A DNA stretch of 64,000 bases from DASRDR01 sp963812945 [NCBI: uncultured Candidatus Rokubacteria bacterium] (GTDB taxonomy: Bacteria > Methylomirabilota > Methylomirabilia > Rokubacteriales): positions 434,001-498,000 of the forward strand of contig CAWEXD010000010.1 in the NCBI GenBank assembly GCA_963812945.1, written 5' to 3'. Shown here one piece after another: positions 5,301-59,909 of this stretch; the stretch's first letter is position 1; the number at the start of each line of letters is the position of its first letter. The notes below the pieces were generated by a model. It did not search any database. It was not told the origin of the DNA and worked only from the letters and a program-made list of their open reading frames with translations. The translations under genes and the position numbers were made by a program.

Positions 5301-5450
5301 TACTGGATGCTAGCTCTGGGACCGAGCTCCCACACACTCGGGCCACCTAACCGCACGGCTTCGCAGCGCGACTACCTGGGCGCGGGTGCGCTTGGATGCG
5401 GCTGAGTTCGGAGGAGTTTGGCACTGACCCGTCACCGAGATTCTGCTGCC
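5301..5450 (-). repeat. tRNA-Lys-half repeat family, copy A (tRNA-like part missing)
   Basis: Contains the conserved outer half of the family: CGAGCTCCCACACACTCG, a diverged middle, then GAGTTCGGAGGAGTTTGGCA and GTCACCGAGATTCTGCTGCC on the plus strand. The tRNA-like T-arm and hairpin present in other copies are absent and replaced by unrelated bases. The last 20 bases match the same position in copy J, so the conserved unit extends past GTCACCGAG in these two. Orientation is given as the strand on which the tRNA-like part would read 5' to 3'. Confidence 0.75.
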
Positions 5451-5545
5451 GGACACCAGGTTCCCGGGGCTGATGGGCCGCCCAGACCTGGACGCCATTC
5501 GGCGCCACTCGGTTGCCCCCGGACTTGCCGGGCTGCGGCCCGGTA

Positions 5546-6184
5546 CTATGCGGTCCCGGGCCGGCTGGTTGGGTTGAGCGCCTTGAAGACGAACGCCGCC
5601 GCGGCCCCTCCCAGCAGTTCCGCAACGATGTAGAGCCACAAGTTGGACCACCGGAGCAAGCCCCGAATCGTGGCGCCGATGGCGACGGCCGGGTTGAAGG
5701 CCGCTCCCGACACCTGGCCGACGGCGAAGGCGCCAGCCAGGACCGTGAAGCCGATAGCAAGACCGAAGTAGGAATTCCTGTCTGTTGCGTCGGCCGTGGC
5801 CACGTTCAACACGACGTACACCAGCGCAAACGTGAAAAGGAACTCGGCCAGAAACACCCCTAATACGGGGGCATGGAATGGATTCACCGGCGCGCCCCGA
5901 AGGGCGAAGCCGACGATCCAGGCCGCACCGGCCGCACCGAGCAGTTGCGCCCCCCAGTATGGCAGCACGTCCGAGGCAGGACACCGCCCCCGCAGGAATA
6001 CCCCGAGCGTGACGGCCGGGTTGTAGTGGGCGCCCGAGATGTGGCCGCCCGCGTAGATCATCGCCATCAGCACGGCCCCGATGGCCAGCGGAGCAATCAC
6101 GCCCGGAGCCGCGGCGAGCCCCGTGCAGCCGATTGTCAATACGAGAAAGAACGTCCCGATGAATTCCGCGGCGTATCGGCGCAT
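5546..6184 (-). CDS. MIP family aquaporin (AqpZ-like)
   Basis: A 212-residue major intrinsic protein with six membrane helices and two half-helix NPA loops: SGAHYNPAVTLG near residue 53 and SGAAFNPAVAIG near residue 168. It should be a water or small-solute channel in the inner membrane. The start MRRYAAEFIGTFFLV is typical for the family. Oddly, the second NPA box is followed by Val (NPAV) where almost all aquaporins have the selectivity-filter Arg (NPAR). The ar/R constriction is therefore altered and substrates other than water are possible. The gene stands alone between repeat copy A and the patatin gene. Confidence 0.93.
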   Translation of the reverse strand: MRRYAAEFIGTFFLVLTIGCTGLAAAPGVIAPLAIGAVLMAMIYAGGHISGAHYNPAVTLGVFLRGRCPASDVLPYWGAQLLGAAGAAWIVGFALRGAPVNPFHAPVLGVFLAEFLFTFALVYVVLNVATADATDRNSYFGLAIGFTVLAGAFAVGQVSGAAFNPAVAIGATIRGLLRWSNLWLYIVAELLGGAAAAFVFKALNPTSRPGTA

Positions 6185-6298
6185 GGCGCGTCCTTTCGTC
6201 TGATTGTCGGGCCTTAGCGTGACGCGGCACGCAACACGTCGACGAGCATCGGTATCGGCCCGCCAGCTAGAAACGGAGCGAGCATTGCGACGGGGCCC

Positions 6299-7735
6299 TC
6301 ACCGGCGCTCCAGGAATTCCACGATCCGCGCCCGGTGCTTCTCGACCGCCTTCTGGGCGGCCTGGATCATGAGCGCGCCGTGACACGGCGCCATCCGGAA
6401 CAGGGTGGGCACCCCGCTCACTTCCTGCTTGAGGACCTCCGCCTTCACGTCGGCCGGAAACTTGTCGCGACACTCCGCGGGCAGCTCCGCGAAGCCGCCC
6501 CAGTCCACCTGGGTGTGGCCGAGCACCTCGATGCGCAGGTGTCCGAAGTCCGGCAGCACGACGTCTTGGGTCCGGAGCGCATCCCACAGCATGAGCTGGT
6601 AGGCGTTGGCGCGCTGCTCCATGATGCCAACGATCCTCCCCGGATCCCGCCTGAACACCTGGAACCCTTTTCGGCCACTGTCCAGGACGCTCTTGTTCGC
6701 GTTGAAGGGAAACGCCGCATCGATGACGATGATCAACCCTCGCTTGGATGAGCCGCGGGGGATCTTCTTCAGGAACAGCGTGGTGAGCGATTCGGTACCG
6801 AGATTGTCGAACAGACCGCCGTCGCCCACGTGCTGGTACGGTGCCCGACCGGCGACGCTGTAAGTGACCGGGCCAACGACCGGGGGGAATGATGCCGAGG
6901 ACACGACCCCGAGGGACAGCTTGAGGTCCCGATGGTCGGCGCGGATGTCCTCGAAGGTCAGGGGGAGAAACTGGCTCTTCGCCGCCTCCAGGTTCTGCCG
7001 GATGATCGCGGTGCCTTGACGGGCGCTCGGATTCGCACGCGCTCGCCCCTCGAGCTCCTCGAGCAGCGTGTCGACGAACTCGTATTTGAAGTCCGCCGCG
7101 GGCAGCGTCGTAAACGCGAAGCGCTGGCCGGAATTGTAGGAGGTCCCGTTGAGAATGATCCGCGGGCTGTCGCCCCGCTTCTCGCGGGCGTGCAGATCGG
7201 CGAACGTCATCCCATTGAGGAACCGTCCGTCCCACACGTCCGCCAGCGAGTAGGCGAGCTTCGTGGGATTGAAGGCTCGAAAGAGCAGGAGCTGCCTGGC
7301 GGCGGCGGGCAACTCGAAATCCTCCTGCATGGCCGCCTTGTAGTCCTTGAAGAATGACTCGTAGACCGGCGACAGCCTCCCCGCGGTCAGCATCGGCTCC
7401 GAGCGCGGCGGCTTGCGGGCAGCGAAGTAGCCGGTCGCCAGGCTCCCGCCCGACACGCTCGAGATGTACTGGACCATATCGAGCACGCTCCGCTGGCCGC
7501 CCACGTGATTGACCGGCGTTCGCGCCAGCGCTTCCAGGACACCGGCGGCGAACGTGGCGGCCCGGCTGCCGCCCCCCGAGATCGCCAGACCCACGAGCAA
7601 GTCCGGGTCCGCCTCCGGAATCGGCTCGAATGCGGGCGTGGCCGCGAGTGATGGCAGGTCCGTGACCTTGGCAAAGCATCCGGTGAGAAGCGTCACCAGA
7701 AGGAGTGCGCGGCATATGGCCCCGCGCGCGTTCAT
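6299..7735 (-). CDS. Patatin-like phospholipase, lipoprotein
   Basis: Predicted acyl hydrolase of the patatin family, anchored as a lipoprotein. From the chosen start it reads MNARGAICRALLLVTLLTGC, a lipobox with Cys20. Patatin landmarks follow: oxyanion motif SGGGSRA (near 53), nucleophile elbow SVSGGS (near 93; the first G of GxSxG is Ser) and the DG dyad in GDGGLFDN (near 290). Probable role is phospholipid or lipid-ester hydrolysis at the outer membrane or periplasm. The frame stays open to an ATG at 7906 with a good AGGAGAGGGAG site, which would add 57 residues before the signal. The lipobox and GGAGGCG upstream favour 7735. The gene is monocistronic by spacing. Confidence 0.88.
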   Translation of the reverse strand: MNARGAICRALLLVTLLTGCFAKVTDLPSLAATPAFEPIPEADPDLLVGLAISGGGSRAATFAAGVLEALARTPVNHVGGQRSVLDMVQYISSVSGGSLATGYFAARKPPRSEPMLTAGRLSPVYESFFKDYKAAMQEDFELPAAARQLLLFRAFNPTKLAYSLADVWDGRFLNGMTFADLHAREKRGDSPRIILNGTSYNSGQRFAFTTLPAADFKYEFVDTLLEELEGRARANPSARQGTAIIRQNLEAAKSQFLPLTFEDIRADHRDLKLSLGVVSSASFPPVVGPVTYSVAGRAPYQHVGDGGLFDNLGTESLTTLFLKKIPRGSSKRGLIIVIDAAFPFNANKSVLDSGRKGFQVFRRDPGRIVGIMEQRANAYQLMLWDALRTQDVVLPDFGHLRIEVLGHTQVDWGGFAELPAECRDKFPADVKAEVLKQEVSGVPTLFRMAPCHGALMIQAAQKAVEKHRARIVEFLERR

Positions 7736-8176
7736 GGCTGGCGCCTCCGTGTCGCCGGCCATCCACGACGATTCGCTGGAAGCCGGCTGGGGTCGACGAT
7801 CCGCCACAATCCGATGGAGACCGGGTGTGGTCGAGGCCCAGGATGATTCGGTGAAGCCCGCGCGCGTGGACGGCCTGGACACGTCGCAGTGCTCCGTGAG
7901 CGCCATCTCCCTCTCCTGCTGTTGCTAAGCCGACCCGGTCCGGCCGGGGGGGCGGTACGTCCGCATTGCATGGGGGCGTCCTGCGCCCACGCCGTGTCCA
8001 AGTCCCGACGCGGACACGCGGTGTGGCGCTGACGCGCGCTCCGCGCTGATAGCGAGATCCACGCCAACCTCGTCGGTCGGGGCCGAGCGCTGCGGAGCGC
8101 GCCCGTTCCGGCTTTGTGGCCGCGCACTTCGTGGGTGGAGCGGCGCGCGCCGGCTGCTACTGGCCGCTCGAGGAGG

Positions 8177-8297
8177 TGCACTGTAAAAGGGGCAGTCCAC
8201 GCCGGCCAACCGCCAGGATCCCCTCGAACACTTGGAATATCGCTGAGTTGCGGGCGCTGCACACCGGACTGTGCACACTGCACTGTGGGGTGTGCAC
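8177..8297 (+). repeat. TGCACA-rich repeat, copy 1
   Basis: About 120 bp that begins GTGCACTGTAAAA and ends in a cluster of TGCACA/TGTGCA words (GCTGCACACCGGACTGTGCA, then CTGCACTGTGGGGTGTGCAC). It aligns, in inverted orientation, with 13763-13896. The best-conserved core is ATCGCTGAGTT followed by GCTGCACACC and ACTGTGCA. Several overlapping short palindromes suggest protein-binding sites or small hairpins. No function is recognised. Confidence 0.7.
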
Positions 8298-8390
8298 CGG
8301 CGCGCGGAGGGGACGCCGAGGTGGACAGGCCCGGGCCCGATCGACGAACCCCCTGAGGTCGGCTACTGCGGCCCTGCGGCCTCGGCGCAC

Positions 8391-8630
8391 GTCCTTGGCA
8401 CGACCGCTACGCTGGAGCCCGCACACGACGCCGATTCGGCTCCTCGAGGTGCCCCCAGATTGAGCCTCGCACGCTTAAATCGAACCTTCAACCTACTGAT
8501 CTGGAACCGAGCTCCCACGCACTTCGACGATCTTAGGCGTATGCATTTCCTGCGAAGCCGCCTGAGCGATGTTCGGCTGAGTGCTGGGGAGTTCGGTGGA
8601 CTTTGGCACTGCCATGTCACCGACACTCCG
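8391..8630 (-). repeat. tRNA-Lys-half repeat family, copy B with 88-bp left block
   Basis: Starts with the 88-bp block shared with copy A. It then shows a shortened tRNA-like segment (TCGAACCTTCAACCTACTGA at 8479-8498) without the acceptor end or hairpin. The conserved outer half follows: CGAGCTCCCACGCACTTCGA, CATTTCCTGCGAAGCCGCCT, GAGTTCGGTGGACTTTGGCA and CATGTCACCGACACTCC. Confidence 0.8.
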
Positions 8631-8793
8631 GAGGTCACGGGGCCCGGACGCAAGGAACGCCGGAGCGGTTGAACGGCAGGATCGCCCGCAGGGGGGCGCC
8701 GCTCCATCGGTCGCGAGTCGATCCAGAGGGTGGGGACCGTCACCGCCGCCGCCATGCGGCCGTGAGCGGTCCCCGCCCTTCCGTACTGAGCTG

Positions 8794-9291
8794 CTACTTG
8801 TTGCGCGGGTCGTCCTTCGGATCGACGTACGTCACGTCGAATGGGCCGGCGCCATTGATCTGGACGATCGTCTCCCCCTCGACCCAGGCGTAGTGCGGCA
8901 TCCCGGCCGGGAGGTGCACGAAGCTCGCCGGCGGCAGGTACGGGCTCGCCGCGCGAGCCAGCTTTTCACCGGACGCGACCGCGAACCGCCCCGCGATCAC
9001 GGTGACGAGCTCGTCCTTCGAATGGCGGTGCGGCGGCACGGCGTAGCCGTTGGGGAACTTCAAGCGGAGCACGAACGGCCCCTCCTTGGCCGGGTTGCCC
9101 AGGAGGACGGCCGCTTGCGCTCCCGGCGGCAGGGAGGGCGGGGCGGGGCCCCACGCGACGGCGTCGGCGGCCACCACCGTGTGATGCAGCACGGCGGCGT
9201 GCGGCGACGGCGCGAGGGCCAGCGTGGCGCCGAGGCCGAGCGCCGCGGCGGTCAGGCTGATCACTGCGAGAGAACGTCCTGCATGGCTCAT
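8794..9291 (-). CDS. Secreted cupin-domain protein
   Basis: A 165-residue protein with an N-terminal signal sequence (LAVISLTAAALGLGATLALA) and a single cupin barrel. The cupin metal motif is recognisable as PPHRHSKDELVTVIAGRFAV (two His and a Glu). Motif 2 is weaker (HLPAGMPHYAWVEG). Close relatives are small exported cupins of unknown substrate. The gene follows the methyltransferase on the same strand after 40 nt, so the two are probably co-transcribed. Function beyond a metal-binding beta barrel cannot be assigned. Confidence 0.85.
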   Translation of the reverse strand: MSHAGRSLAVISLTAAALGLGATLALAPSPHAAVLHHTVVAADAVAWGPAPPSLPPGAQAAVLLGNPAKEGPFVLRLKFPNGYAVPPHRHSKDELVTVIAGRFAVASGEKLARAASPYLPPASFVHLPAGMPHYAWVEGETIVQINGAGPFDVTYVDPKDDPRNK

Positions 9292-9331
9292 GACTCTGTC
9301 CTTTCCCGTGGGCTCAGGTGGCCCACACTCG

Positions 9332-10183
9332 TCAGTCTCTGGTGACGACGACCTCGAGGTACTCGGCGGGTACGACCATGGAGCCGTCCCGCGCGCGGTT
9401 GAACCGCTCGACCAGGGCGATCAGGTCGCGCTCGAGCTCGGCTCGCGATGCGGGCTCGAGCGCGGCGAAGGCCTTGAGGACCGGGCCGTAGTAGTTCCGG
9501 AAGACCTCCAGCCAGTGCGCCGGCGAGCGGTAGCGAAACACGAAGTGCCGTGGCGAGGTCGCGATCGAGGCCCCGTGGAGCCCGAACAGCTCGGCGATCC
9601 GCGCCCGGGTGCCCCAGAGCGCCGGCGACCGGGCGCCCGGAGGCGGCGGGAGGTGGCGGCCGATGGTCTTGAACACCTGACCGATGAAGCCCTCGGGCGT
9701 CCAGTTGGCGAGCCCGATCTTTCCGCCGGACTTCACGACGCGGAGCATTTCGCTCGCCGCCGTTTCCTGGTCGGGGGTGAACATCACCCCGAAGGTCGAC
9801 ACGACGACGTCGAAGCTCTCGCTCGGGAACGGAAGCGCCTCGGCGTCGGCCTCGCGGAACTCGATGTCAAGCCGTTCGGCGGCGGCTCGCTCGCGGGCGC
9901 GATCGAGCAGCTCGGGCACGTAGTCGGAGGCGACCACCTGGCACCATCGGCGCGCGGCCGCCAGCGAGACGTTCCCGTTGCCGGCCGCGACGTCCAGGAC
10001 CTTCTGTCCCGCGCGGATGTCGAGGGCCTCGCACAGCTCCTCGCCGACGATCTGCAGGGTCGTCCCGACGATGGCATAATCGCCCGAGGACCAGGCGGCC
10101 CGCTGGCGCGTCTTGAGCGCCTGGAGGTCGGCTTGGCCGGCGGGCTCGCGGGTTCGGGTCATGGGTACGGTGCTTGCGTCCAT
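9332..10183 (-). CDS. Class I SAM-dependent methyltransferase
   Basis: A 283-residue soluble methyltransferase of the UbiE/MenG-like type. Motif I (KVLDVAAGNGNVSL, residues 61-74) binds SAM. The acidic residue of motif II lies in VVASDY, motif III is visible as DVVVSTFGVMF, and a post-motif region reads KIGLANWTPEGF. The substrate is unknown; the WTPEGFIGQ segment is common in small-molecule C- or O-methyltransferases. The start follows AGGAGAGATGAC. It heads a probable operon with the secreted cupin and is divergent from a BTAD-type regulator whose start is 113 bp away, which suggests that regulator controls it. Confidence 0.9.
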   Translation of the reverse strand: MDASTVPMTRTREPAGQADLQALKTRQRAAWSSGDYAIVGTTLQIVGEELCEALDIRAGQKVLDVAAGNGNVSLAAARRWCQVVASDYVPELLDRARERAAAERLDIEFREADAEALPFPSESFDVVVSTFGVMFTPDQETAASEMLRVVKSGGKIGLANWTPEGFIGQVFKTIGRHLPPPPGARSPALWGTRARIAELFGLHGASIATSPRHFVFRYRSPAHWLEVFRNYYGPVLKAFAALEPASRAELERDLIALVERFNRARDGSMVVPAEYLEVVVTRD

Positions 10184-10296
10184 GTCATCTCTCCTCGTCG
10201 TCCTTCGATGCTTCGTTTCGCATCGGCCACGGCGGTCATCCGGGCCGCGCTCCGTGTGCGGCTCGTGACCGTCGATTGCGAGCGTAGCGTCCCGCC
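10184..10296. promoter_or_regulatory. Divergent intergenic region between methyltransferase and BTAD regulator
   Basis: This 113-bp gap separates two outward-reading genes and must hold both promoters. I see no unambiguous -35/-10 pair. Direct GTGGGAGCC/GTGGTAGCC/GTGGGAATT steps occur at the start of the regulator gene and could belong to its coding sequence or to an operator. Confidence 0.4.
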
Positions 10297-12345
10297 GTGG
10301 GAGCCACCGTGGTAGCCGCCGTGGGAATTCCCGAGGAGTTCGCCGGGCTGGGCCGGCCCGGCCAGCCCCCCGCGATCCACGTTCGGATGCTCGGGCGCCT
10401 GACGGTCTGGCGGCGGGGCGCCCCCCTGGCGCTGCCGGCCTCCCGCAAGGTGCGGGCGCTCTTCGCCTACCTGGCCCTGGCGCCGCGGCCCGTGACGCGG
10501 GGCCAGCTGTGCGAGCTCCTCTGGGAGGTTCCGAACGACCCGCGTGGCGAGCTCCGGTGGTCTCTCAGCAAGGTCCGGCGCCTCGTCGACGAGCGTGGCC
10601 GCCGGCGCGTCCAGACCCGCGCGGACACCGTTTGGCTGGACCTGTCGGACTGCCTCGTCGACGCGATCGAGGTGGCCCGCGCGACCGGCGAGGGCATCGA
10701 GACGCTCCCGGCGGGCCGGCAGCGCGCGCTGGCCGCGCTGTTCGGCGGCGACTTCCTGGAAGGCCTGGCCATCGGCCGCAGCCCCGCCTTCGACGGGTGG
10801 CTCACGGCCCAGCGCCGCCGATTCCGCGGCTGCCACGCGGCCCTGCTGGAGCACCTCGTCAAGCGCGTGCCCGACGACGAGGCGTTCCCATACCTGGAGC
10901 ACTGGCTCCAGCTGGCGCCCTTCGATCCGCGCGTCCACGACCTCCTGCTGAGCGCCTTCGCCCGGCGCGGCCAGATCCGGGAAGGCGAGGAGCACCTGGC
11001 CGCGACCGCCCGGCTGTTCGAGGGCGAAGGCCTCGACGCGGCGCCGCTGCGCGACGCCTGGCAGTCGGCGAGGGCGCGCGCCGCCTCCACGCCGGAGATC
11101 CGGGTCTCCGCTCCGTGGATGCCCGCCGCTGGCAGCGACGCCGTCATCATCCCGGCGGCTCGCCGCGCCTCCATCGCGGTGATGCCGTTCGTCGACCGGT
11201 CCGCCACCGCCGACACCCGCGGCGGGCCCGCCGACGCGCTCGCCCACGACGTGATCACCCGGCTCGCGAAGCTGCGCATCCTGTTCGTCATCGCCGAGGG
11301 GACCGTGTTCGCCTTGCACGAGCGCCGCGTCGGTCCCGAGGAAGCCGGCCGGATGCTGAACGTCGACTACGTCGTGAGCGGCACCCTCCGGCGCGACGGC
11401 AAGCAGCTCGCGGTGACGGTCGAGCTGACCGAGACGCGGACCGCCCGGATCGTGTGGGCGGAGGGCCTGAAGCACAAGCTGGACGATGCGTTCCTCGTGA
11501 TCGAGAAGATCGGCAACCGGATCGTCGCCACCGTCGCGAGCGAGATCGAGACGATCGAGCGCAACCGCGCCATCCTACGGCCGCCGAGCTCGCTGGACGC
11601 GTGGGAGGCGCATCACCGGGGCTTGTGGCACATGTACCGGTTCAGCAAGGCCGACAACGAGCGCGCCCGGCACTTCTTCGGGACGGCGGTGCGCCTCGAC
11701 CCGACCTTCGCCCGCGCCTACGCCGGCCTGTCCTTCACGCACTTCCAGACCGCGTTCCAGGGCTGGGCGAAGCGCGGGCCGGCGGTGGACCGGGCCTTCG
11801 AGGCCGCCACGCAAGGCCTCATGGCCGACGACCGCGACCCCGCCGCCCACTGGGCCATGGGCCGGGCGCTCTGGCTGCGCGGCCAGGACGACCAGTCCGT
11901 CGTCGAGCTCGAGCGGGCCATCGACCTCAGCCCCAATTTCGCCCTGGGCCACTACACGCTGGCGTTCGTCAACTCGCAGACGGGCGACCCGAAGGCCGCC
12001 ATCTCCTCCTCCGACTACTCGCGCCGACTGAGCCCGTTCGACCCCCTCCTGTTCGGCATGCTGGGCGCGCGCGCCATGGCGCTCGTCCGGCTCGGCCGGC
12101 TCGAGGAAGCCGCCGACTGGGCCGTCAAGGCCGCCTGCCGCCCCAACGCGCATCCGCACATCCTCGCGATCGCCGCCTTCAGCCTGGCGCTGTCGGGGTC
12201 GCTCGACGAGGCGCGCAAGTGGGCCACCGCGCTGCGCCGCGCGCATCCCGGCTACGGCATCGCCGACTTCCTCGGTGCCTTTCGGTTCGACCCGCCCGGC
12301 GCGGCGCTGTTTCGCAAAGGGGCCAGGCGTCTCGGGTTGGCGTGA
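10297..12345 (+). CDS. BTAD (SARP-like) regulator with TolB-like and TPR regions
   Basis: A 682-residue regulator. Residues 30-110 form a winged-helix DNA-binding domain of the OmpR/SARP type (RMLGRLTVWRRG, KVRALFAYLAL, RWSLSKVRRLVDE). Residues 115-265 match the bacterial transcriptional activator (BTAD) helical domain. Residues 290-410 resemble the TolB/FlgO-like segment common in cyclase and Lon-type regulators (ASIAVMPFVDRS, LNVDYVVSGTLRRDGKQLAV). The C-terminal half is TPR repeats with NPNFALGHYTLA-like units. It is cytoplasmic and probably activates the divergent methyltransferase-cupin operon. The GTG start is uncertain by a few codons. No effector domain is evident. Confidence 0.88.
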   Translation: MGATVVAAVGIPEEFAGLGRPGQPPAIHVRMLGRLTVWRRGAPLALPASRKVRALFAYLALAPRPVTRGQLCELLWEVPNDPRGELRWSLSKVRRLVDERGRRRVQTRADTVWLDLSDCLVDAIEVARATGEGIETLPAGRQRALAALFGGDFLEGLAIGRSPAFDGWLTAQRRRFRGCHAALLEHLVKRVPDDEAFPYLEHWLQLAPFDPRVHDLLLSAFARRGQIREGEEHLAATARLFEGEGLDAAPLRDAWQSARARAASTPEIRVSAPWMPAAGSDAVIIPAARRASIAVMPFVDRSATADTRGGPADALAHDVITRLAKLRILFVIAEGTVFALHERRVGPEEAGRMLNVDYVVSGTLRRDGKQLAVTVELTETRTARIVWAEGLKHKLDDAFLVIEKIGNRIVATVASEIETIERNRAILRPPSSLDAWEAHHRGLWHMYRFSKADNERARHFFGTAVRLDPTFARAYAGLSFTHFQTAFQGWAKRGPAVDRAFEAATQGLMADDRDPAAHWAMGRALWLRGQDDQSVVELERAIDLSPNFALGHYTLAFVNSQTGDPKAAISSSDYSRRLSPFDPLLFGMLGARAMALVRLGRLEEAADWAVKAACRPNAHPHILAIAAFSLALSGSLDEARKWATALRRAHPGYGIADFLGAFRFDPPGAALFRKGARRLGLA

Positions 12346-42051: not shown

Positions 42052-42085
42052 GGAGGATTCCGACGTCGTCGCCTGGCTGGCCGGT

Positions 42086-51750: not shown

Positions 51751-51752
51751 GA

Positions 51753-52203: not shown

Positions 52204-53052
52204 TCACGCTGGTGTGCAATGCGGTTCAAGGGGCAGGACGACCCCGGCCGCCTGCCGCGTCAACAGGTGGAGGTAGGTCGAGAGGATGTGCTCGCAGGCG
52301 ATGTCCGTCCTGACGAGGATCTTTGGCGGGACACTCAGGATCACCGGGTTGAGTTCCGTGACCTCGGCGACGTGCTCGTAGAGAGGCGGCAGGGGCAACT
52401 TGGGCACGAGATCCATCCGGTTGGCGATTCGGAACGTTCGGGGAACGACCTGGTTGTATGTACTCGCGAAAGCCGGATCGCCCGTACGCGGGCTTGCGTA
52501 GCTGTAGACCTCAGGATCCCTAAAGCGCGTATTGGCGGCGACATCGACGGCTAAGAGCGTCACCAAGGCCCCACCGAGACTGTGCCCGCAGATCGTGAGT
52601 GACTGGACGGGCCTCCTCCATGAAAGCCCTTCCAGTGATTCCGAGACGGACGGCGAGCCCGGAGCCGCGTCGACAGCGAGGGACATGTACATCGACGTGA
52701 AGCCGTCCTCGGTGTGGCCGGCGCCAGCGAGGAACGGGGTGGCAACGAGGAGAAACCGCCCGTCCTGTAGCCACTCGTGCACGCCCTCGGTGCCACGGAT
52801 GGCGATCAGGGCGTCGCCGGTCGTAGTGTTCTGGAGGATGAGACCGATGGAGACCCGGGCGTCGCCTCGCTGCGGGTTCATGTCCGTCGCCAGGTCGTTC
52901 GCGTAGACGGTCGTGATGACGACGTACGTAGTACTCGCGTCGCCGAGGGTGACGGTGAGAGTCTGGCCGGCCGCGTTGGCGAGCTGGGTAGGGGGAACCT
53001 CGTAGGCTTTTCCGACTACCTGGCCAAAGTGAATCGTCTTGCTCAGGTCCAT
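52204..53052 (-). CDS. Class 3 lipase family protein
   Basis: A 282-residue alpha/beta-hydrolase of the lipase-3 type without a signal peptide. The nucleophile elbow is LTICGHSLGGALVTLLAVD (Ser near 157). The catalytic Asp is likely in RIANRMDLVPKLPLPP and the His near the C-terminus (CEHILSTYLHLL). LIAIRGTEGVHEWLQDGRF is the usual strand before the lid. It likely hydrolyses acyl esters. The ATG follows GAGGGGTCGG. It lies beside an IS remnant and a MACPF gene, so a joint role as membrane-attacking proteins is possible. Confidence 0.9.
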   Translation of the reverse strand: MDLSKTIHFGQVVGKAYEVPPTQLANAAGQTLTVTLGDASTTYVVITTVYANDLATDMNPQRGDARVSIGLILQNTTTGDALIAIRGTEGVHEWLQDGRFLLVATPFLAGAGHTEDGFTSMYMSLAVDAAPGSPSVSESLEGLSWRRPVQSLTICGHSLGGALVTLLAVDVAANTRFRDPEVYSYASPRTGDPAFASTYNQVVPRTFRIANRMDLVPKLPLPPLYEHVAEVTELNPVILSVPPKILVRTDIACEHILSTYLHLLTRQAAGVVLPLEPHCTPA

Positions 53053-53588
53053 CAATCCGACCCCTCCCGTTAGGATGCCCGTGAGTCTATGCGGGCGCGT
53101 GGGAGCCAGTCAACAGAACGATCGACGGGTTCCTGCGCTTCTACAACCACGACCGACCCCATCAGGGCTATCGCCTTCGCGGACAGCCCCCCGCCTCGCT
53201 CTTCTGGGGTGCGGTGCGCGCATGATCTCATCCACCACTCTGGACCGCTCACCGTGTCAACACCTTTGCAGGTCTGGACACCTTAGCGGCGCTGGCCGGA
53301 GCCCGGCGAACGACCCAGTAGAAGCAGGACGGTGCTCGTCGTCGGCGGGCAGATCCGGCTGCGCCGGCTCGATGGGTGGCGCCAAATCCCGGCACTGCTA
53401 TGCGACCACCGACGGCCAGCGGCATGACGTAGCGCGTGCTGGCGCCAGGATCGCGTTCGACGGGCCGACGCGATCCGGACCCTAGCTATGCTGCGACATC
53501 ACCCGCGCACCGGAAGGCGCGCCCCAGCATTTTCCCCATCAAGCGGGACACCACCGATCGTGGCTTGGACCGTCCTGCGCGTGGCTCT
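53053..53588. other. Intergenic region with a transposase relic
   Basis: Contains the IS481-like tail (53103-53225). The remaining bases are high GC with no other feature that I can support. Confidence 0.4.
53103..53225 (+). pseudogene. C-terminal fragment of an IS481/IS3-like DDE transposase
   Basis: The plus strand encodes EPVNRTIDGFLRFYNHDRPH then QGYRLRGQPPASLFWGAVRA and a stop. The FYNxDRPHxGYRLxGxTP block is the signature tail of rve-type (integrase core) transposases. About 40 codons remain. It shows that an insertion sequence different from the intact one at 55.2-56.6 kb once flanked the lipase. Confidence 0.8.
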
Positions 53589-55013
53589 CTAGGTCTTCTT
53601 TACGAGCATCCAATAGCCATCACCCTGTTCTGTGGTCGAGAGAACAAGCGAGAGAACAAGTTGATCGCCGAATAGTGTTTTTACGTCAGGATTTGTTACC
53701 TGCGACGCATGGAGTATTTGATCCGCGAATGCAGGACAGTGACTAAGGATCTGCACGCGTTGACCGTAGCAAAACGGCTTGTAACTCGCGATGGTATCGC
53801 CCAGTATCTTCACCGTCCAGTCGGCCTCGCCTCCCGTGGGAGCTCCCGCGGGAACGTACATGATCGGAACGGAAGCAGCCACAGCCATCGTGCTCCCGAA
53901 CAGGGGGAACGGTCCAGGTGGATCGCGATTGGGTTCGTTCGTCCTCAGTTGCGTAATCTCGCCTGCCCTTACTACATCTCCCACCGCGCCGACTACAAAC
54001 GATAGCGGCACCCTACCCTCCAGCGCCACGGTGGGAAAATTCCAGAAATTCACTTCCCCTTGCATGGTTCCAGCAGCCACGACATAGTGTCCATCCTGGT
54101 CTTTGAGGTAAAACTCATCACCATACCGGACTACGTCCCCAGTAAGGAGATTGGGGTCCGTCCGTCCCCTCATATAGCTTTGCCAGGCCTCTTGAAGCTG
54201 GGCCCGACGCGAGCCGGTCGTCAATTCGTACAGGGGCACCAATCCGCCTTGGTCAAAGTCGGCAATCGACACGTAATTGGGCACGCTGGCGGACCACTTG
54301 TCATACGTAGCCGGGACATCCTGTCCAGTCCCCGTGGCCACTTGCTGGCCCAGAGCGGGATCGCCGCCCACAACGCGAATTGTCTTATTGCTCGCGACCT
54401 GATCAAGGTCACTCTTGGCGATCGTCTCCCCGCCGCCCTTCCCGGGAGTCAGGAACGCATTGAATGCGGCGTCGGCAGTAGCCTTGAAGTCAAAATTTTG
54501 TGTGACCTCGGAAGTATCCACACAGCTTGTATAAGAAACGCGCCCGCCGAGGTAGAACGAATTGAGATAGTGGGTCCCGTACGTCTCGAAGAGTTTGCTA
54601 GGAGGCCAAGTGTCGAGAGCGCTTTTCACATCTGGGTTCAGTTGGGCGCTGTCACCAACGCTCAGGCGGTAGTACGACAGGCAATGGTGGGCCGTCGCGA
54701 ACTGATGATCGGCCTTGTTGAGTACATCGTCGTCGAAGTTGGCCTTCACTTCAGCGGAGAAGCCAGCGTAGGCGCCCCCAAGTGAGATGTTCGTCGAGAG
54801 CGATTCGAAGTATTGACTCTTATCCTCGCCAAAGGCAAACGACCCTTGGTATTCCGGTGTGCGCTGAACGTTCACGTCCTTCAAGTCCGGGAAATCAAAA
54901 TCAAACAAGCTCAACGTGCAGCTCATAGGGCTCGCGTAGAACTGCCACCCCTTATATCCCTTTCCGAGAAAGTTCTGAACACCCGCGATGACCATCTGGG
55001 GATAGTTAGTCAT
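53589..55013 (-). CDS. MACPF (membrane attack complex/perforin) domain protein
   Basis: A 474-residue protein with the MACPF signature YGTHYLNSFYLGG at residues 145-157, preceded by the strand and helix pattern of the domain (SLSTNISLGGAYAGFSAEVK, YYRLSVGD) and followed by the GGG-containing hinge (TPGKGGGETIAKSDLDQVAS). The C-terminal 220 residues look like a beta-trefoil/lectin-type binding domain (DEFYLKDQDGHYVVAAGTMQ, FNFWNFP-like). No signal peptide is seen, as in many bacterial MACPF effectors. It would assemble into pores in target membranes. GC content is visibly below the flanks and an IS element lies next door, which suggests transfer. GGAGGGCTTAG precedes the ATG. Confidence 0.87.
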   Translation of the reverse strand: MTNYPQMVIAGVQNFLGKGYKGWQFYASPMSCTLSLFDFDFPDLKDVNVQRTPEYQGSFAFGEDKSQYFESLSTNISLGGAYAGFSAEVKANFDDDVLNKADHQFATAHHCLSYYRLSVGDSAQLNPDVKSALDTWPPSKLFETYGTHYLNSFYLGGRVSYTSCVDTSEVTQNFDFKATADAAFNAFLTPGKGGGETIAKSDLDQVASNKTIRVVGGDPALGQQVATGTGQDVPATYDKWSASVPNYVSIADFDQGGLVPLYELTTGSRRAQLQEAWQSYMRGRTDPNLLTGDVVRYGDEFYLKDQDGHYVVAAGTMQGEVNFWNFPTVALEGRVPLSFVVGAVGDVVRAGEITQLRTNEPNRDPPGPFPLFGSTMAVAASVPIMYVPAGAPTGGEADWTVKILGDTIASYKPFCYGQRVQILSHCPAFADQILHASQVTNPDVKTLFGDQLVLSLVLSTTEQGDGYWMLVKKT

Positions 55014-55149
55014 CTAAGCCCTCCACGAGCTGTTACGGTCAGTACGCCTCTAGCGGCAGCCGTCGCGGACGCCACGGGGTGAGGCCACGGGAACTGGCTG
55101 GTCGAGACTCTAGGACCGGTCGCGACACCTGTCAATCCCGCGCATCGAA

Positions 55150-56646
55150 TCAAAATTTCGGTTACCGAACGGAGGGGTCTCCATCAAAAGTCACGGTTAC
55201 CAATCCCAGCCAGGAGGTGACCGTGACCCGAGCCAGTCTGCGGGAGTACGCCGCCGTGCAGCGGGAGCGCTACCTGCGCGCCCCGCGGGCGGAGAAGCAC
55301 CGGCTGCTGAACGAGGTGGTCGCGGTCTCGGGCCTCCACCGCAAGGCGGCCATCCGGCTGCTCCGGCGCGCCCCACACCTGGGGGCCTCGCGCCTGCGCG
55401 CCGGCCGGCCGCGCCTCTACGGCCCCGCGGTCGCCGCGGCGGCCCAGCTCCTCTCCGAGGCCACGGGCCACATCGGCCCTCACCGGTGGCATCCCTTTCT
55501 CCCCGAACTGCTCGATCGGCTGACTCGGAGTGGCGACGTGGGGGTCACCCCCGATGTCGACAAGCACCTGCGCCAAGTCAGCCCCGCCACCCTCGCCCGC
55601 CTCTTGGCGCCTTTTCGGCGCACCCTGCCGCACCGGGGCCTCACGACGACCCGCCCCGGCGCCTGGCTCAAGCACCAGATCCCCGTCCGCACCTTCGCCG
55701 AGTGGACCGACGCCCAGCCCGGCTTCCTCGAACTGGACCTGGTCGCCCACTGCGGCCCCACCACCACGGGCTTCTACCTCTACACCCTCTGCGCCGTCGA
55801 TGTCGCGACCACGTGGGTCGACCTCCAAGCCGTCTGGGGCAAGGGCCAGAAACGGGTCGGCACCGCCATCCATCACGTCCGCCAGCGCCTGCCTATGCCC
55901 CTGCGCGGCCTGGACAGCGACAACGGCTCCGAGTTCATCAACCACGACCTGTATGCCTGGTGCCAGCGCGAGAGCATCACCTTCACCCGCAGCCGCCCGT
56001 ATCAGAAGAACGACGGTGCCCACGTCGAGCAGAAGAACGGCGCCATCGTCCGCCCGCTCATCGGCTATGATCGCTACGCCTCCAAGGCCGCCTATGCCCA
56101 GCTCGCTCGCGTGTATGATCTCGCGCGCCTGCACATCAACTTCTTCCAACCGGTCCAGCAGCTCGTGCGCAAGGAGCGCCGCGGCCCGCGCGTGCATCGC
56201 GTGTACGATCGCGCCCGCACCCCGTATCAGCGTCTCGGGGCGACGGGCGTACTCCCCGCCCGTCGGCGGCAGGAGCTCGAGGCGGTGTATCAGCGCCTGA
56301 ACCCGCTGCATCTCCGCCGTCAGCTCGAGACCGCCCTGGAGCGCCTCTGGACCTTGGCGGTCCCGCCCGGGTCGTCCTCACCGGCACCCCGGGAAAACGC
56401 CCAGGGAGGGGGATAGCCGATATGGCCTCGCGCCCAACTCGCGCGCCTACGGGCTCCCAGCGGCCCGCGCGCCTCACCCCGAACCTTGCGAGCGGCCCCG
56501 GCGCGCTCCGGGCGCGCGGCCCGCTCCGCCCGCCGTCACCCGCACGGCCTCACGCTCGCCCCTCACGAGGCCGTGCCGCCGCCTCGCGGCCCCGAGTAAC
56601 CCTGACTTCTGATCTGACAGGTCTCGGAGGGTAACCCTGACTTATG
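55150..56646 (+). mobile_element. Insertion sequence with a DDE (rve) transposase and doubled terminal repeats
   Basis: The element spans the transposase gene and bears imperfect inverted ends. Each end has the 14-base word AAGTCA(C/G)GGTTACC or a close variant twice. Left: AAAATTTCGGTTACCG and AAAGTCACGGTTACC about 35 bp apart. Right (reverse complement): ATAAGTCAGGGTTACC and AGAAGTCAGGGTTACTC about 35 bp apart. GATCAGAAGTCA versus CATCAAAAGTCA also match. The doubled words are probably transposase-binding sites. A target duplication was not identified. Confidence 0.75.
55223..56416 (+). CDS. DDE integrase-core transposase
   Basis: A 397-residue transposase. The GTG start at 55223 follows the perfect ribosome site AGGAGGTGACC. 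An N-terminal helix-turn-helix region (YLRAPRAEKHRLLNEVVAVS GLHRKAAIRLLRRAP) binds the ends. The rve catalytic core has the three acidic residues: Asp in FLELDLVAHCGPTTTG (near 195), Asp in RGLDSDNGSEFINHDL (near 238) and Glu in HVEQKNGAIVRPLIGYDRY (near 275). It moves the element by a cut-and-paste or copy reaction. Reading frame intact; an in-frame GTG far upstream at 55079 is rejected. Confidence 0.9.
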   Translation: MTRASLREYAAVQRERYLRAPRAEKHRLLNEVVAVSGLHRKAAIRLLRRAPHLGASRLRAGRPRLYGPAVAAAAQLLSEATGHIGPHRWHPFLPELLDRLTRSGDVGVTPDVDKHLRQVSPATLARLLAPFRRTLPHRGLTTTRPGAWLKHQIPVRTFAEWTDAQPGFLELDLVAHCGPTTTGFYLYTLCAVDVATTWVDLQAVWGKGQKRVGTAIHHVRQRLPMPLRGLDSDNGSEFINHDLYAWCQRESITFTRSRPYQKNDGAHVEQKNGAIVRPLIGYDRYASKAAYAQLARVYDLARLHINFFQPVQQLVRKERRGPRVHRVYDRARTPYQRLGATGVLPARRRQELEAVYQRLNPLHLRRQLETALERLWTLAVPPGSSSPAPRENAQGGG

Positions 56647-56846
56647 AGTGACCGCGTTCCCGCACAAGTTGCCCCCCTGACCCCGGCATCGGACAGTAGC
56701 GCGGGGCTAGGGTCTGAGCCGGAACGGCCGGCAACCCACCCGGCCGACCCGGCGCAGGATCTAGGATCGCGAGAGAGCGGTCAGGAGTGCTTGAAGGCGA
56801 TCGCACTATACCTCTGTCTGTCCGATCGTGGCGCCAGCGGGCTCCG

Positions 56847-56995
56847 TCAGTGGATCACTTCATCCGCCCGCGCGAGCACGCAGGCCGCCCGCCTCGGTCT
56901 GGCTCCGGAACGTGGAAGACCATGGGGAGCCGATGCTTCAGCGCCAGATCCTGGCGGATCTGGCGGTGCTCCTCCAGGTGGGCGGCGTCGAACAC
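56847..56995 (-). pseudogene. Deletion relic of an ABC_sub_bind solute-binding protein
   Basis: On the minus strand one frame gives HRQIRQDLALKHRLPMVFHV PEP, equal to the LAxKHRLP-M segment before the hinge of these proteins. A few bases later another frame gives VLARADEVIH and a stop, the invariant C-terminus of the tandem binding proteins at 48.0-51.0 kb. About 80 residues between are deleted. The terminal DNA GATCACTTCATCCGCCCGCG CGAGCAC matches the ends of those genes. Confidence 0.7.
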
Positions 56996-57164
56996 CTACG
57001 CCCGATGGCTCCCGATGGGCAACAAGGCGGCGATCGACGGACTGGACGACAAGGGGACCACCCGGAGGGTCAGGGACCAGGGCCACAGTCCCGAGGTCGG
57101 ACCCTAGTCCGGGGCGCCCGACTCCCCGATCTCAGAGCGGTCGGCGAGGGGTGCTCCCGCCCGA

Positions 57165-57412
57165 GTGGTAGCAAAGTGGTAGCAGAAACAGGATCAGGGG
57201 GTGCCGGGTGCCCGGCATCCCCCTGATTTGAATGGTGAGCCGTGAAGGAATCGAACCTTCAACCTACTGATTAAGAGGTGGTTCCCGGGACCGAACTCCT
57301 ACGCACTCAGGAGATCTAAGGCCACGAATCTTCTGCGCGCCGCGTGATGGATGTTCGCCTGCGTGTGGTGGAGTTCGGTGGAGTTTGGCACTGGCATGTC
57401 ACCGGAGATTCG
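57165..57412 (-). repeat. tRNA-Lys-half repeat family, copy M (complete, second hairpin type)
   Basis: GTGGTAGCAAAGTGGTAGCA doublet; hairpin ATCAGGGGGTGCCGG-GTGC-CCGGCATCCCCCTGAT; GGTGAGCCGTGAAGGAATCG; CTGATTAAGAGG; CGAACTCCTACGCACTCAGG; CGAATCTTCTGCGCG; GATGTTCGCCTGCGTGTGGT; GAGTTCGGTGGAGTTTGGCA; CATGTCACCGGAGATTCG. Very similar to copy L (90% or more by eye) across the left arm and hairpin. Confidence 0.9.
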
Positions 57413-57570
57413 TTACCAGCCAGACCTTGGACATGAAGTCCTCCGTTTTGGTATGTGCCCAAGGCTGGCGCCACTCGGGTCACACCGCCAGCCCACGGTG
57501 CTCGAGTTGTGAACGACGACACAGATCGACCGCGGCATCCTACGGATGGACCCATTCAGGTCGTCCAAAC

Positions 57571-58554
57571 CTACATTCGTCGTGCGGTCTTCTTCCTTGG
57601 CCGAGTGGGGTGCGGCCCGCTTGCGCCTTCGACTCCCTGCTCTCGACGATACTGCCCCGGGGAGATCCCCATGACCCGTCGGAATACCTTGCCGAAGGCA
57701 CTGTCGGATTCGTATCCGACCGCGGCGGCAATCGCGGCGAGCTTCACCGCACGGCTCTCCCGCATCATGCTCGCGGCCCGCACCATCCGCCACTGCGTGA
57801 GGTGCTCAAGGGGCGTCTCCCCGACGAGCGCCCGGAATCGCGCGGCGAACGCCGAGCGAGACATCGACACCCTGCGCGCCAGGGTCGGCACGGTCCACCC
57901 GTGTCCGGGCTGGAGATGCATGAGTCGCAAGACCTCGCCGATCTGCGCGTCGCCGAGCGCCCGAAGCCAGCTCGGGCTCCCGTTCAACACCGACGACTGG
58001 ATGCGGCTACGCATGGCTTGAACGAAAAGGACCTCGGCCAGCCGGTCCACGATCGCGACGGATCCGGGCAGGTCCTGCACGGTCTCGGCCGCGATGAACT
58101 GCAACGTGGACTGGAACCACGGCGTCGAGTGCGGCCCGGAGGCGGGCAGATGGATGATCGGTGGGAGGTGCTTGACGAGAAGGTCGCTCTCCGGTGACGC
58201 GAACGTGAAGCACCCGGCGACGACCGACGTCAAGGCGCCGGGACCCCCGTACCGGATGAGCCGCGACTGTTGAAAGGCCCCGGGCGTCGTTACCTCCTGC
58301 ACGGAGCGGACACGGATCCCGGGGTTGTTTCGGAGTGAATAGGTTCGGGGGGCCGGCAGGAAGACGAAGTCACCGCCGACTAGCGGGGTGAGCGGGAGCT
58401 CGTCCACCCCGAGCACGCAGGCGCCGCGGGTGACGATCAGGCAGATGCCTTTGCCGGCGGGGAACTCGAGGCCGAACGGCGCGGTCAGCTCCATCCGGCC
58501 GTAGAGGTGACCCTGCGTCCGGAGCACCGCCATGATCTCAGCGAGAACGTCCAT
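57571..58554 (-). CDS. AraC family transcriptional regulator with cupin domain
   Basis: A 327-residue regulator. Residues 15-190 form a cupin-type (Cupin_6) effector domain (GRMELTAPFGLEFPAGKGIC, GDFVFLPAPRTYSLRNNPG). Residues 205-305 contain the two helix-turn-helix units of AraC (LRLMHLQPGHGWTVPTLARR VSMSRSAFAARFRALVG and AAIAAAVGYESDSAFGKVFR RVMG). It is divergent from the NTF2-SDR pair, 196 bp away, and probably regulates that operon. The last 20 residues are a basic tail. Confidence 0.92.
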   Translation of the reverse strand: MDVLAEIMAVLRTQGHLYGRMELTAPFGLEFPAGKGICLIVTRGACVLGVDELPLTPLVGGDFVFLPAPRTYSLRNNPGIRVRSVQEVTTPGAFQQSRLIRYGGPGALTSVVAGCFTFASPESDLLVKHLPPIIHLPASGPHSTPWFQSTLQFIAAETVQDLPGSVAIVDRLAEVLFVQAMRSRIQSSVLNGSPSWLRALGDAQIGEVLRLMHLQPGHGWTVPTLARRVSMSRSAFAARFRALVGETPLEHLTQWRMVRAASMMRESRAVKLAAIAAAVGYESDSAFGKVFRRVMGISPGQYRREQGVEGASGPHPTRPRKKTARRM

Positions 58555-58750
58555 CTTTCACCTGTCGATCTGGCGTATCGGACCAATAATAGCGCCTTCC
58601 AGACATGAATCGTCCATCACGCGTGGCGTAATCTGCCATCGACGCGGAGCAGCATAGACCGCGACACGCGCGAGGTCCATCCTTCGCCGGCAGGCGACGG
58701 GGCGGCCGAGCCGACGGTCGGCGAAGCGTCCCGACAACCAGGAGGTCCGG

Positions 58751-59080
58751 ATGTCCATGCATCTGCCACGGCCGATCCAGATCTATTTCTCACCAGACAC
58801 GGCCCACGAGACGGACGCCCTTGCCACATGCTTTGCCGTGGACGCCACGGTCCGGGATGAAGGCCGTACGTTCGAGGGTCTGGCTGCCATCACGGCGTGG
58901 AGGACCGAGACAAAGAAGCAATATCGCTACACGGTCGAGCCGGTCGAGGCGGTTCGGCGGGACGGCCAGACCGTCGTCACGGCGAGAGTCTCCGGCGACT
59001 TCCCCGGCAGCCCGGTCACTCTGACGTTCATCTTCAGGCTCAAGCGCGACCACATCACGTCGCTGGAGATCCGGCCATGA
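58751..59080 (+). CDS. NTF2/SnoaL-like protein
   Basis: A 109-residue protein with the SnoaL-like fold: [41 protein letters not shown] is the first helix and strand of the family, and [20 protein letters not shown] the central strands. It is a small dimeric cytoplasmic enzyme or ligand-binding protein of unknown substrate. ATG follows CCAGGAGGTCCGG. It overlaps the downstream SDR gene by 4 nt (ATGA), so the two are an operon. Confidence 0.87.
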
Positions 59081-59858
59081 GCGACCATCTCGAGCTGGAT
59101 GGCCGCCGCGCGCTGGTGACTGGCGGCACCCAGGGGATCGGCCACGCGGTGGCGACGCGGCTGCGCGAGGCCGGGGCGACGGTGCTCACGACCGCCCGCG
59201 CCCGGCACGATGACTCGTCCCCGGAAGATCGGTTCGTGGCGGCGGACCTGAGCACCGCCGACGGCTGCGCCACCGTCGCGGACGTTGTCCGGGAGCGCCT
59301 CGGCGGCATCGACATCATCGTCCATGTCGTTGGCGGCTCTTCGGCGCCTGGAGGCGGATTCGCGGTCCTGAACGATGCCGAGTGGCAGCGCGCGCTCGAT
59401 CTCAACCTCTTTCCGGCGGTCCGGCTCGACCGCGCACTCCTGCCGGCGATGGTGCGCCAGGGCGCGGGCGTCATCGTCCACGTCACGTCGATTCAGCGGC
59501 AGCTGCCGCTGCCCGACGCCACCCTGGCCTATGCCGCGGCGAAGGCGGCGCTCGCCAACTACAGCAAGGGCCTGTCAAAGGAGGTGGCCGCGAAAGGCAT
59601 CCGCGTGGTCCGCGTCTCCCCGGGCTGGGTGGAGACCGACGCGGCCGTTGGCCTGGTCAAGAAGTTGGCGGCGAGCCGGGGGACGGACTACGAGGGGGCC
59701 CGTCAGGCGCTGATGGCGCCCTCGGCGGGATCCCGATCGGGCGGCCGGCAAAGCCGCGGGAGGTCGCGGATCTCATCGCTTTCCTCGTGTCTCCCCGCGC
59801 CGCCGCGATCACCGGCACGGAGTACGTGATCGACGGGGGGACAGTACCGACCGCATGA
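59077..59858 (+). pseudogene. Short-chain dehydrogenase/reductase, frameshifted near the C-terminus
   Basis: An SDR gene of about 260 codons. The first frame gives the NAD(P) site VTGGTQGIG (near 15), [29 protein letters not shown] (the catalytic Ser, Tyr-x3-Lys) and [13 protein letters not shown]. After RQALM (near 59716) the conserved sequence continues only in another frame: [46 protein letters not shown] to the stop at 59858. ATGGCGCCCTC instead of the expected ATGGACGCCCTC implies loss of one A. Either a sequencing error or a recent inactivation; without it the protein would be intact. It would act with the NTF2-like partner. Confidence 0.85.
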
Positions 59859-59883
59859 CGGTGCCGGCCTGAGATGAGGAAAC

Positions 59884-59909
59884 ACGAATCGGGGGGCGTC
59901 GCCGCCCCA
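59884..59909 (-). repeat. tRNA-Lys-half repeat family, copy N (hairpin remnant only)
   Basis: CACGAATCGGGGGGCGTCGC CGCCCC matches the hairpin of copies H, J and K and then stops abruptly before the second stem arm is complete. No tRNA-like or outer half follows. Confidence 0.6.

What the first reader, a model, noticed from the sequence alone, without database searches (positions are those of the whole stretch)
5301..59909. Dispersed intergenic repeat built on the 3' half of a tRNA-Lys(CUU)-like sequence
Fourteen copies or fragments (A-N) carry, on the minus strand, a leader of about 130 bp and then an anticodon-loop-like CTCTTAA, its 3' stem TCAGT, a perfect T-arm GAAGG-TTCGATT-CCTTC, an acceptor arm ACGGCTC and ACCA, followed by a GC hairpin. 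A 5' tRNA half (GAGCCGT) is not present in any copy. The repeats are intergenic and occur about every 2-10 kb. I know of no named family like this. It looks like a bacterial SINE-like or integration-scar family.
Basis: seen in the sequence. Interest (0 to 1): 0.85.

Follow-up and report, generated by a model that had tools for sequence, protein, structure and literature searches.

The report
Chain of tRNA-Lys integration sites
The repeated sequence is best read as a string of leftover docking sites where mobile DNA pieces inserted one after another using the end of a transfer-RNA gene, an unusually long example of a known way that bacteria stack up foreign genes rather than a new kind of repeat.

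Summary
Fourteen copies or fragments lie at 5.2-59.9 kb, all on the minus strand; none touches a called gene. The tRNA-Lys(CUU) 3' half is recognisable in 10, the 129-bp leader in 11; no 5' half was found. The SINE-like reading fails. The parts are those of a tyrosine-recombinase attachment site: the tRNA half is the core, the leader carries arm-type repeats (CCRAACTCC at -111/-101), and a GC hairpin follows. An IMG/VR contig encoding a phage integrase has the same layout (arms at -138 to -117 and +98). In an Acidobacteria genome an intact tRNA-Lys(CUU), a tyrosine integrase and a displaced half 14 kb away form a classical island. Three window junctions are mosaics that switch type at the tRNA half, as recombination there would give. 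Best reading: tandem site-specific accretion of integrase-less, CIME-like elements carrying 1-7 ordinary genes each, a known kind. About 13 modules with no detected integrase is unusual against the papers I saw. Not seen: the anchor tRNA, the recombinase, the host phylum. The decay gradient fails significance if the most degraded copy is counted.

The parts
57191..57406 (-). junction c57: type-a leader + perfect tRNA-Lys(CUU) 3' half + hairpin b
57166..57184 (-). TGCTACCA arm repeats on the P' side of c57 (+93/+104 from the anticodon loop)
51522..51737 (-). junction c51: type-a leader + perfect half + hairpin b
51498..51515 (-). TGCTACC arm repeats on the P' side of c51 (+93/+104)
47101..47313 (-). 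junction c47: foreign (type-b) leader with TGCTACCA arms at 47295-47313 (-126/-115) + half + hairpin a
43206..43421 (-). junction c43: type-a leader + half (2 changes in the T-arm) + hairpin a
41022..41237 (-). junction c41: type-a leader + half (1-nt loss in the acceptor part) + hairpin a
37250..37465 (-). junction c37: type-a leader (arms -111/-101, inverted copy -21) + perfect half + hairpin a
34624..34839 (-). junction c34: type-a leader + perfect half + hairpin a variant
32254..32300 (-). c32: decayed half only (loop CTCTCAA), no leader
28140..28258 (-). c28: leader fragment + different GC hairpin, no recognisable tRNA half
23490..23606 (-). c23: leader fragment + hairpin like that of c28, no recognisable tRNA half
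13360..13575 (-). c13: diverged leader + half (damaged CCA), no type-a hairpin
8425..8625 (-). c8: leader + decayed half; downstream 52 bp shared with c5
5240..5440 (-). c5: decayed leader, no recognisable half
59876..59925 (-). c59: hairpin a with what looks like a wrecked tRNA-half remnant, no leader
47314..51497 (.). module c51-c47, bounded by TGCTACCA arms at both ends: an element inserted into a type-a site; carries three ABC_sub_bind genes
5441..59875 (.). whole array: 13 intervals of 2.0-9.9 kb, each with 1-7 called genes (38 in all: 15 plus, 23 minus)

Best explanation
The repeats are junctions (attachment sites) of a tandem array of mobile elements that integrated, one after another, into the 3' half of a tRNA-Lys(CUU) gene by tyrosine-recombinase site-specific recombination. 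Crossover lies in the tRNA half (core). The leader is the P arm of one element, with arm-type recombinase-binding repeats. The tRNA half and terminator-like hairpin are the left end of the next element; such elements bring a tRNA end so that the target tRNA gene is restored. Each new arrival goes in at the tRNA-proximal site and pushes older ones away, so distant junctions are most decayed. The modules now hold ordinary cargo genes and no detected integrase, so they are CIME-like (cis-mobilizable) or mobilised in trans. Shown here: anatomy, one orientation, mosaic junctions, the matching layout in an integrase-bearing IMG/VR contig, and a classical island at the same tRNA elsewhere. Inferred: that the arm-like repeats bind a recombinase, the order of arrival, an anchor tRNA-Lys beyond the window, and the missing recombinase.
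For: (1) The half starts at the anticodon loop and ends at CCA; anticodon-centred sites are one of the main classes in Islander (2083 against 1836 of the other class; PMC4383910, passages). (2) L032, an IMG/VR contig, has the same half, a GC hairpin, and AGCTAGCA repeats at -138, -127, -117 and +98, beside an ORF with Phage_integrase (9.5e-19) and Arm-DNA-bind_3 (7.8e-15). Window repeats are at -126/-115 (c47), +93/+104 (c51, c57) and -111/-101 (type a, 6 of the 7 copies checked; -112/-102 in c41). TGCTACCA occurs 5 times in the window, all at these junctions (0.42 expected, 0 of 100 shuffles reached 5). CCRAACTCC occurs 23 times on both strands, 22 inside the units (mean 1.0, largest 3 in 20 shuffles). 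(3) In G001 an intact tRNA-Lys(CTT) at 12870-12945 is followed by a tyrosine integrase at 12956-14488 (Phage_integrase 3.1e-24), and the half recurs at 27118, same contig and strand. (4) Mosaics (8 units): in the hairpin, c57 and c51 match each other at 0.93 but c47, c43, c41, c37, c34 at only 0.51-0.60 (random 43-mers: mean 0.54, largest 0.70); in the leader they match c43, c41, c37, c34 at 0.85-0.95. c47 matches every leader at only 0.57-0.65 (random pairs: mean 0.56, largest 0.66) yet shares the hairpin of c43, c41, c37, c34 at 0.81-0.93. The half is 0.89-1.00 throughout. Joining the left part of c51 to the right part of c47 gives a type-a site: 0.945 to c37 (c51 itself 0.876, c47 itself 0.747); to c34, c41, c43: 0.908, 0.912, 0.876, each above c51 and c47 themselves. 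(5) The two ends of interval c51-c47 are of one type (b) although neither of its two junctions is; four more intervals have a/a ends, which the rival also allows. (6) 13 of 13 firm copies share one orientation while 15 of 38 genes point one way and 23 the other. (7) Decay towards low coordinates: tRNA-half score, rho 0.77, p 0.002 on 13 copies without c59; leader, rho 0.77, p 0.005 on 11 copies. In streptococcal composites the most decayed elements lie farthest from the target gene (PMC7563491, passages).
Against: No tRNA gene in the window, so the anchor is unseen. c59, the copy nearest the presumed tRNA side, is badly decayed; with it the gradient of the half is not significant (rho 0.44, p 0.12, 14 copies). 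No tyrosine integrase among 48 of 49 called genes plus 2 further ORFs, nor in 20 of 104 open gap segments of at least 85 aa; 83 of those segments were not scanned. Interval c57-c51 has ends of different type. Type-a sites show no CCRAACTCC repeat downstream of the hairpin. c5, c8, c13, c23 and c28 do not carry hairpin a. The hairpins of c34 and c47 are not called terminators, and the number of terminator-like sites in 34.5-47.5 kb (4) does not exceed its shuffles (mean 5.4).
Confidence: 0.82

Rival explanations
1. Integron-like cassette system: a recombinase encoded elsewhere in the genome actively excises and inserts 2-10 kb cassettes through the 213-bp site, each cassette carrying one site.
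For: No integrase detected in any module; closely similar complete sites at c34, c37, c41, c43; modules hold mostly unrelated ordinary genes in either orientation.
Against: Differs from the main explanation only in present activity and in one dedicated recombinase, neither seen. Decay of c5, c8, c23, c28 and c32 shows that part of the array is dead. Modules are larger than typical integron cassettes (recalled). The integron core motif GTTRRRY is present on the minus strand in only 2 of 12 units searched.
Confidence: 0.18
2. SINE-like or MITE-like dispersed repeat: a 213-bp unit copied by transposition into intergenic places.
For: Sharp common boundaries at about -129 and +80 to +89 in c34, c37, c41, c43; no unit overlaps a called gene.
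Against: 13 of 13 firm copies in one orientation; no target duplication beyond control in 7 of 7 tested; mosaic junctions c57, c51, c47; an integrase-bearing contig has the same layout.
Confidence: 0.06
3. A structured RNA or regulatory unit (leader + tRNA-like end + terminator) kept for function.
For: Leader arms form a long inverted repeat; hairpins of c37, c41 and c43 look like terminators.
Against: No Rfam match at gathering threshold; 0 of 40 predicted pairs show a two-sided compensatory change in 8 copies; copies decay.
Confidence: 0.03
4. Assembly artefact: a repeat that misjoined unrelated contigs.
For: No whole genome is held for the window, so its source may be a metagenome contig; repeats of about 200 bp can be misjoined (recalled).
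Against: The seven type-a-like leaders differ from each other by 5-27%, and the half with a hairpin recurs in independent records next to integrases. GC in 2-kb windows is 0.63-0.76, which neither helps nor hurts.
Confidence: 0.02

Closest known systems
Cis-mobilizable elements (CIMEs) and tandem site-specific accretion, including at tRNA-Lys(CTT) of Streptococcus agalactiae (PMC7563491, PMC5704250; passages read)
   Same: Elements that keep att sites but lack integrase; composites at the 3' end of a tRNA-Lys(CTT) gene; chimeric att sites between elements; most decayed element farthest from the target gene.
   Different: The S. salivarius composites of PMC7563491 hold two or three elements, and PMC5704250 mentions up to six tandem copies of SGI1; here about 13 different modules. 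No conjugation origin could be shown.
Additive flexible genomic islands (Ca. Methylopumilus fGI-2, PMC10872708; Ca. Actinomarinales, PMC7771536; Alteromonas, PMC4119200; passages read)
   Same: tRNA gene as target for repeated insertion of gene modules; copies of the tRNA end as trace; in Methylopumilus the tRNA is also tRNA-Lys(ctt), with repeats 'in varying frequencies'.
   Different: The passages give repeats of the tRNA end alone (20 bp in Methylopumilus); here the repeat is a 213-bp site with arm-like repeats and a hairpin. How many repeats those islands hold was not in the passages seen.
tRNA-integrated islands as mapped by Islander (PMC4383910; passages read)
   Same: tRNA fragment displaced to the island end, same orientation, anticodon-centred core, tyrosine integrase in the type case.
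   Different: Islander needs an integrase in each array member; its table lists 4 under tandems of three or more (3919 islands in all).
Tycheposons (Prochlorococcus; seen only through passages of PMC10872708 and PMC11389934; the original paper is not held)
   Same: Cargo elements at tRNA genes with tyrosine recombinases.
   Different: Not tested.
Integron cassette arrays (recalled)
   Same: Same-direction recombination sites separating cargo modules.
   Different: The type switch falls in a tRNA half, modules are 2-10 kb with genes on both strands, GTTRRRY in 2 of 12 units only, no integrase seen.

Membership tests
tRNA-integrated genomic island | Displaced 3' tRNA fragment reaching CCA, fragments in one orientation | tested here: met
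   10 of 14 copies carry a recognisable half, all minus strand
tRNA-integrated genomic island | Intact cognate tRNA gene at one end | tested here: inconclusive
   none in the window; the genome is not held
tRNA-integrated genomic island | Tyrosine integrase in the island | tested here: not met
   none among 48 of 49 called genes plus 2 other ORFs nor in 20 of 104 gap segments; the array may continue outside the window
CIME / tandem accretion array | att sites kept on both sides of a module that lacks an integrase | tested here: met
   for c51-c47; also c47-c43, c43-c41, c41-c37, c37-c34
CIME / tandem accretion array | Derivation from an ICE or IME by deletion | tested here: inconclusive
   no relaxase or conjugation family among the Pfam matches; no relative to compare
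CIME / tandem accretion array | Most decayed modules farthest from the target gene | tested here: inconclusive
   rho 0.77 (p 0.002) on 13 copies, 0.44 (p 0.12) on all 14; the tRNA side is inferred
Additive flexible genomic island | Presence/absence variation of modules between strains | not testable with these tools
   no second strain or close relative was reachable
Integron | Recombination site with GTTRRRY core | tested here: not met
   motif on the minus strand in 2 of 12 units; type switch lies in the tRNA half
Integron | IntI integrase at the array's end | tested here: inconclusive
   none in the scanned part of the window; the array's ends may lie outside
SINE / MITE-like dispersed repeat | Target-site duplications and insertion in both orientations | tested here: not met
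   0 of 7 with a duplication beyond control; 13 of 13 firm copies one orientation
Tycheposon | Characteristic tycheposon gene modules | not tested
   original paper not held

The most novel reading that the evidence does not exclude
An integron analogue built on a tRNA gene: one chromosomal tyrosine recombinase of an uncultured bacterium collects and shuffles many 2-10 kb, integrase-free gene modules through a standard 213-bp attachment site whose core is half of tRNA-Lys(CUU).
Probability: 0.15. Interest if true: 0.75.

Novelty: new member of a known kind. Interest (0 to 1): 0.36.

Why it matters
It turns a puzzling 'tRNA-derived repeat' into a readable record of serial integration. About 13 modules at one kind of tRNA site, none with a detected integrase, is more than the two or three elements (or up to six identical copies) reported in the passages I read, so the locus is a good place to ask how integrase-free modules are collected and mobilised. 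It also warns that tRNA-half repeats in draft or metagenomic assemblies should be checked as attachment sites before being called a new repeat family.

Tried and rejected
SINE/MITE: rejected on orientation, lack of target duplication and mosaic junctions. Structured RNA: no Rfam hit at gathering threshold; alignment fold without two-sided compensatory pairs. attC-like reading of the leader's inverted repeat: considered because of GTTRRRY strings in c5 and c23; dropped because the motif is in only 2 of 12 units and the type switch falls in the tRNA half. A leader-like 20-mer in two 81.7-kb viral contigs has no further likeness to the unit and is taken as chance; a longer leader pattern had no viral hit. 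Leader in other genomes: 0 of 396 genomes of the G001 phylum and 1 of 395 of the G002 phylum, a 22-bp match; these phyla need not be the host's and there was no positive control, so this shows little. An exact pattern for the half matched in 13 of 396 genomes of the G001 phylum, at most 2 places in any; the 10 loci returned all hold an intact tRNA-Lys, so most such hits are the gene itself; six window copies fit the same pattern. Placing the host: among listed matches a UbiD protein of the window reached at most 40% identity in 149 genomes of the G001 phylum, so the host is probably not close to those; Rokubacteria untested. tblastn of the G001 integrase against the window gave nothing better than E 0.42, at 51735-51875; the open segment over it has no Pfam match. 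Plasmid collection: one Bacillus record covering 18% of the query.


Full report
Observation. The T-arm motif occurs 9 times on the minus strand and is not expected by chance. Repeat finding, blast within the window and alignment define a unit of about 213 bp: a 129-bp leader, the 45-nt 3' half of tRNA-Lys(CUU) from the anticodon loop to CCA, and a GC hairpin. Its boundaries are sharp in c34, c37, c41 and c43. There are 14 copies or fragments: 8 with leader and half, c47 with a half and another leader, c32 with a half only, c5, c23 and c28 with leader only, and c59 with hairpin only. ARAGORN finds no tRNA, no 5' half was found, and Rfam finds nothing at gathering threshold.

Surroundings. Forty-nine genes were called by a home-made caller; 48 of them, plus two further ORFs, were scanned with Pfam. 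None of the 14 units overlaps a called gene; the 13 intervals are 1,969-9,915 bp long and hold 1-7 genes each, 15 of 38 on the plus and 23 on the minus strand. The cargo is ordinary and mostly unrelated from interval to interval, for example aquaporin and patatin; methyltransferase, cupin and a TPR protein; UbiD and an ABC importer; a sigma factor; an M28 peptidase; a sortilin-like protein and a LuxR regulator; 2OG-Fe(II) oxygenases; an adenylate cyclase-AAA-TPR protein; three ABC_sub_bind proteins; a MACPF protein, a lipase and an rve protein; an AraC regulator and an SDR. Two families recur in more than one interval: luciferase-like monooxygenases and ABC_sub_bind. No tyrosine recombinase was seen, also not in 20 of 104 open gap segments of at least 85 aa.

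Anatomy. The leader has two direct CCRAACTCC repeats 10 bp apart, at -111 and -101 from the anticodon loop, and an inverted copy at -21 (-22 in c57; in c41 the direct pair sits at -112/-102 and the inverted copy is not intact). The motif occurs 23 times in the window, 22 of them in the units. The hairpins of c37, c41 and c43 score as terminators; those of c34 and c47 do not, and the total of such sites in 34.5-47.5 kb (4) is not above shuffles (5.4). A second system is visible at three junctions: TGCTACC(A) repeats at -126/-115 of c47 and at +93/+104 of c51 and c57; TGCTACCA occurs 5 times in the window, all there, with 0.42 expected.

Independent comparison. A scan of the viral collection for the tRNA half gave L032 and L033; both have a tyrosine recombinase near the half. 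In L032 the half is followed by a GC hairpin and flanked by AGCTAGCA repeats at -138, -127, -117 and +98, a layout like that of the window's junctions. A third contig, L003, came from a shorter pattern with the leader's last base in front; the half lies near the end of the contig, and no ORF of 200 aa or more overlaps the 2.2 kb searched beside it. In the Acidobacteria genome G001 an intact tRNA-Lys(CTT) is followed by a tyrosine integrase, and the half recurs 14 kb away. A scan of genome contigs for the half preceded by the leader's last base found two stretches, L001 (the displaced half of G001) and L002; in G002 a displaced half and a tRNA-Lys gene lie on different contigs.

Decisive test inside the window. 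Eight units were split into leader, half and hairpin and compared pairwise. Leaders group c57, c51, c43, c41, c37, c34 (and, more loosely, c13) against c47; hairpins group c57, c51 against c47, c43, c41, c37, c34, with c13 like none; the half is common to all. The type therefore switches at the half. c51 (leader a, hairpin and arms b) and c47 (leader b with arms b, hairpin a) are the two ends of an element inserted into a type-a site: joining their outer parts gives a site 0.945 identical to c37. The ends of c51-c47 agree (b/b) although neither junction is of one type; the four a/a intervals are also allowed by the rival and do not discriminate; c57-c51 has ends of different type and may have lost a junction. 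A repeat that transposes as an intact unit would not give these mosaics.

Order and age. The tRNA half and the leader decay towards low coordinates (rho 0.77 for each, 13 and 11 copies), but the gradient of the half is not significant on all 14 copies (rho 0.44, p 0.12). The tRNA gene would lie beyond the high-coordinate end; it was not seen.

Known kinds. Tandem accretion of integrase-less elements, including at tRNA-Lys(CTT), with the most decayed elements farthest from the target gene, is described for streptococci (PMC7563491 and PMC5704250, passages). Additive islands with recurring tRNA-Lys(ctt) ends are described in Ca. Methylopumilus (PMC10872708, passages), and tRNA-targeted gene cassettes in Ca. 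Actinomarinales and Alteromonas (PMC7771536, PMC4119200, passages). Islander's table lists 4 under tandems of three or more, with 3919 islands in all (PMC4383910, passages), although it requires an integrase in each member. I therefore file this as a long member of a known kind. A search for papers holding Rokubacteria, tRNA, repeats and mobile elements together found none; a broader search listed ten of 152 papers, none of the ten holding the names of that group.

Limits. The host genome is not held, the host phylum is not established, and no strain comparison was possible, so present activity of the sites and the identity of the recombinase remain open.

Noticed in passing
51738-51760 (minus) and about 23607-23630 (minus): Upstream of the unit, c51 and c23 share an extra stretch (CTTCCTATTC..TCGAATC); in c51 it has the shape of a T-arm, possibly the end of another tRNA.
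   Followed up: no
48010-50971: Three tandem paralogous ABC_sub_bind (PF04392) genes fill the module bounded by TGCTACCA arms; a fourth lies at 23743-24708.
   Followed up: partly
55217-56416: A protein with an rve core domain (just below Pfam's cut-off) lies in the interval with mismatched ends (c57-c51), which may have lost a junction.
   Followed up: no
32254-32300: c32 is a half with loop CTCTCAA and a changed acceptor end and no leader: a decayed Lys half or the end of another tRNA.
   Followed up: partly
5240-5291 and 8426-8477: c5 and c8 share a 52-bp downstream stretch (96%) unlike hairpins a and b; c23 and c28 share yet another hairpin: perhaps further, older site types.
   Followed up: no
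L033 (IMG/VR) 9543-12088: A viral contig carries the same tRNA-Lys half 1.3 kb from a tyrosine recombinase gene.
   Followed up: partly
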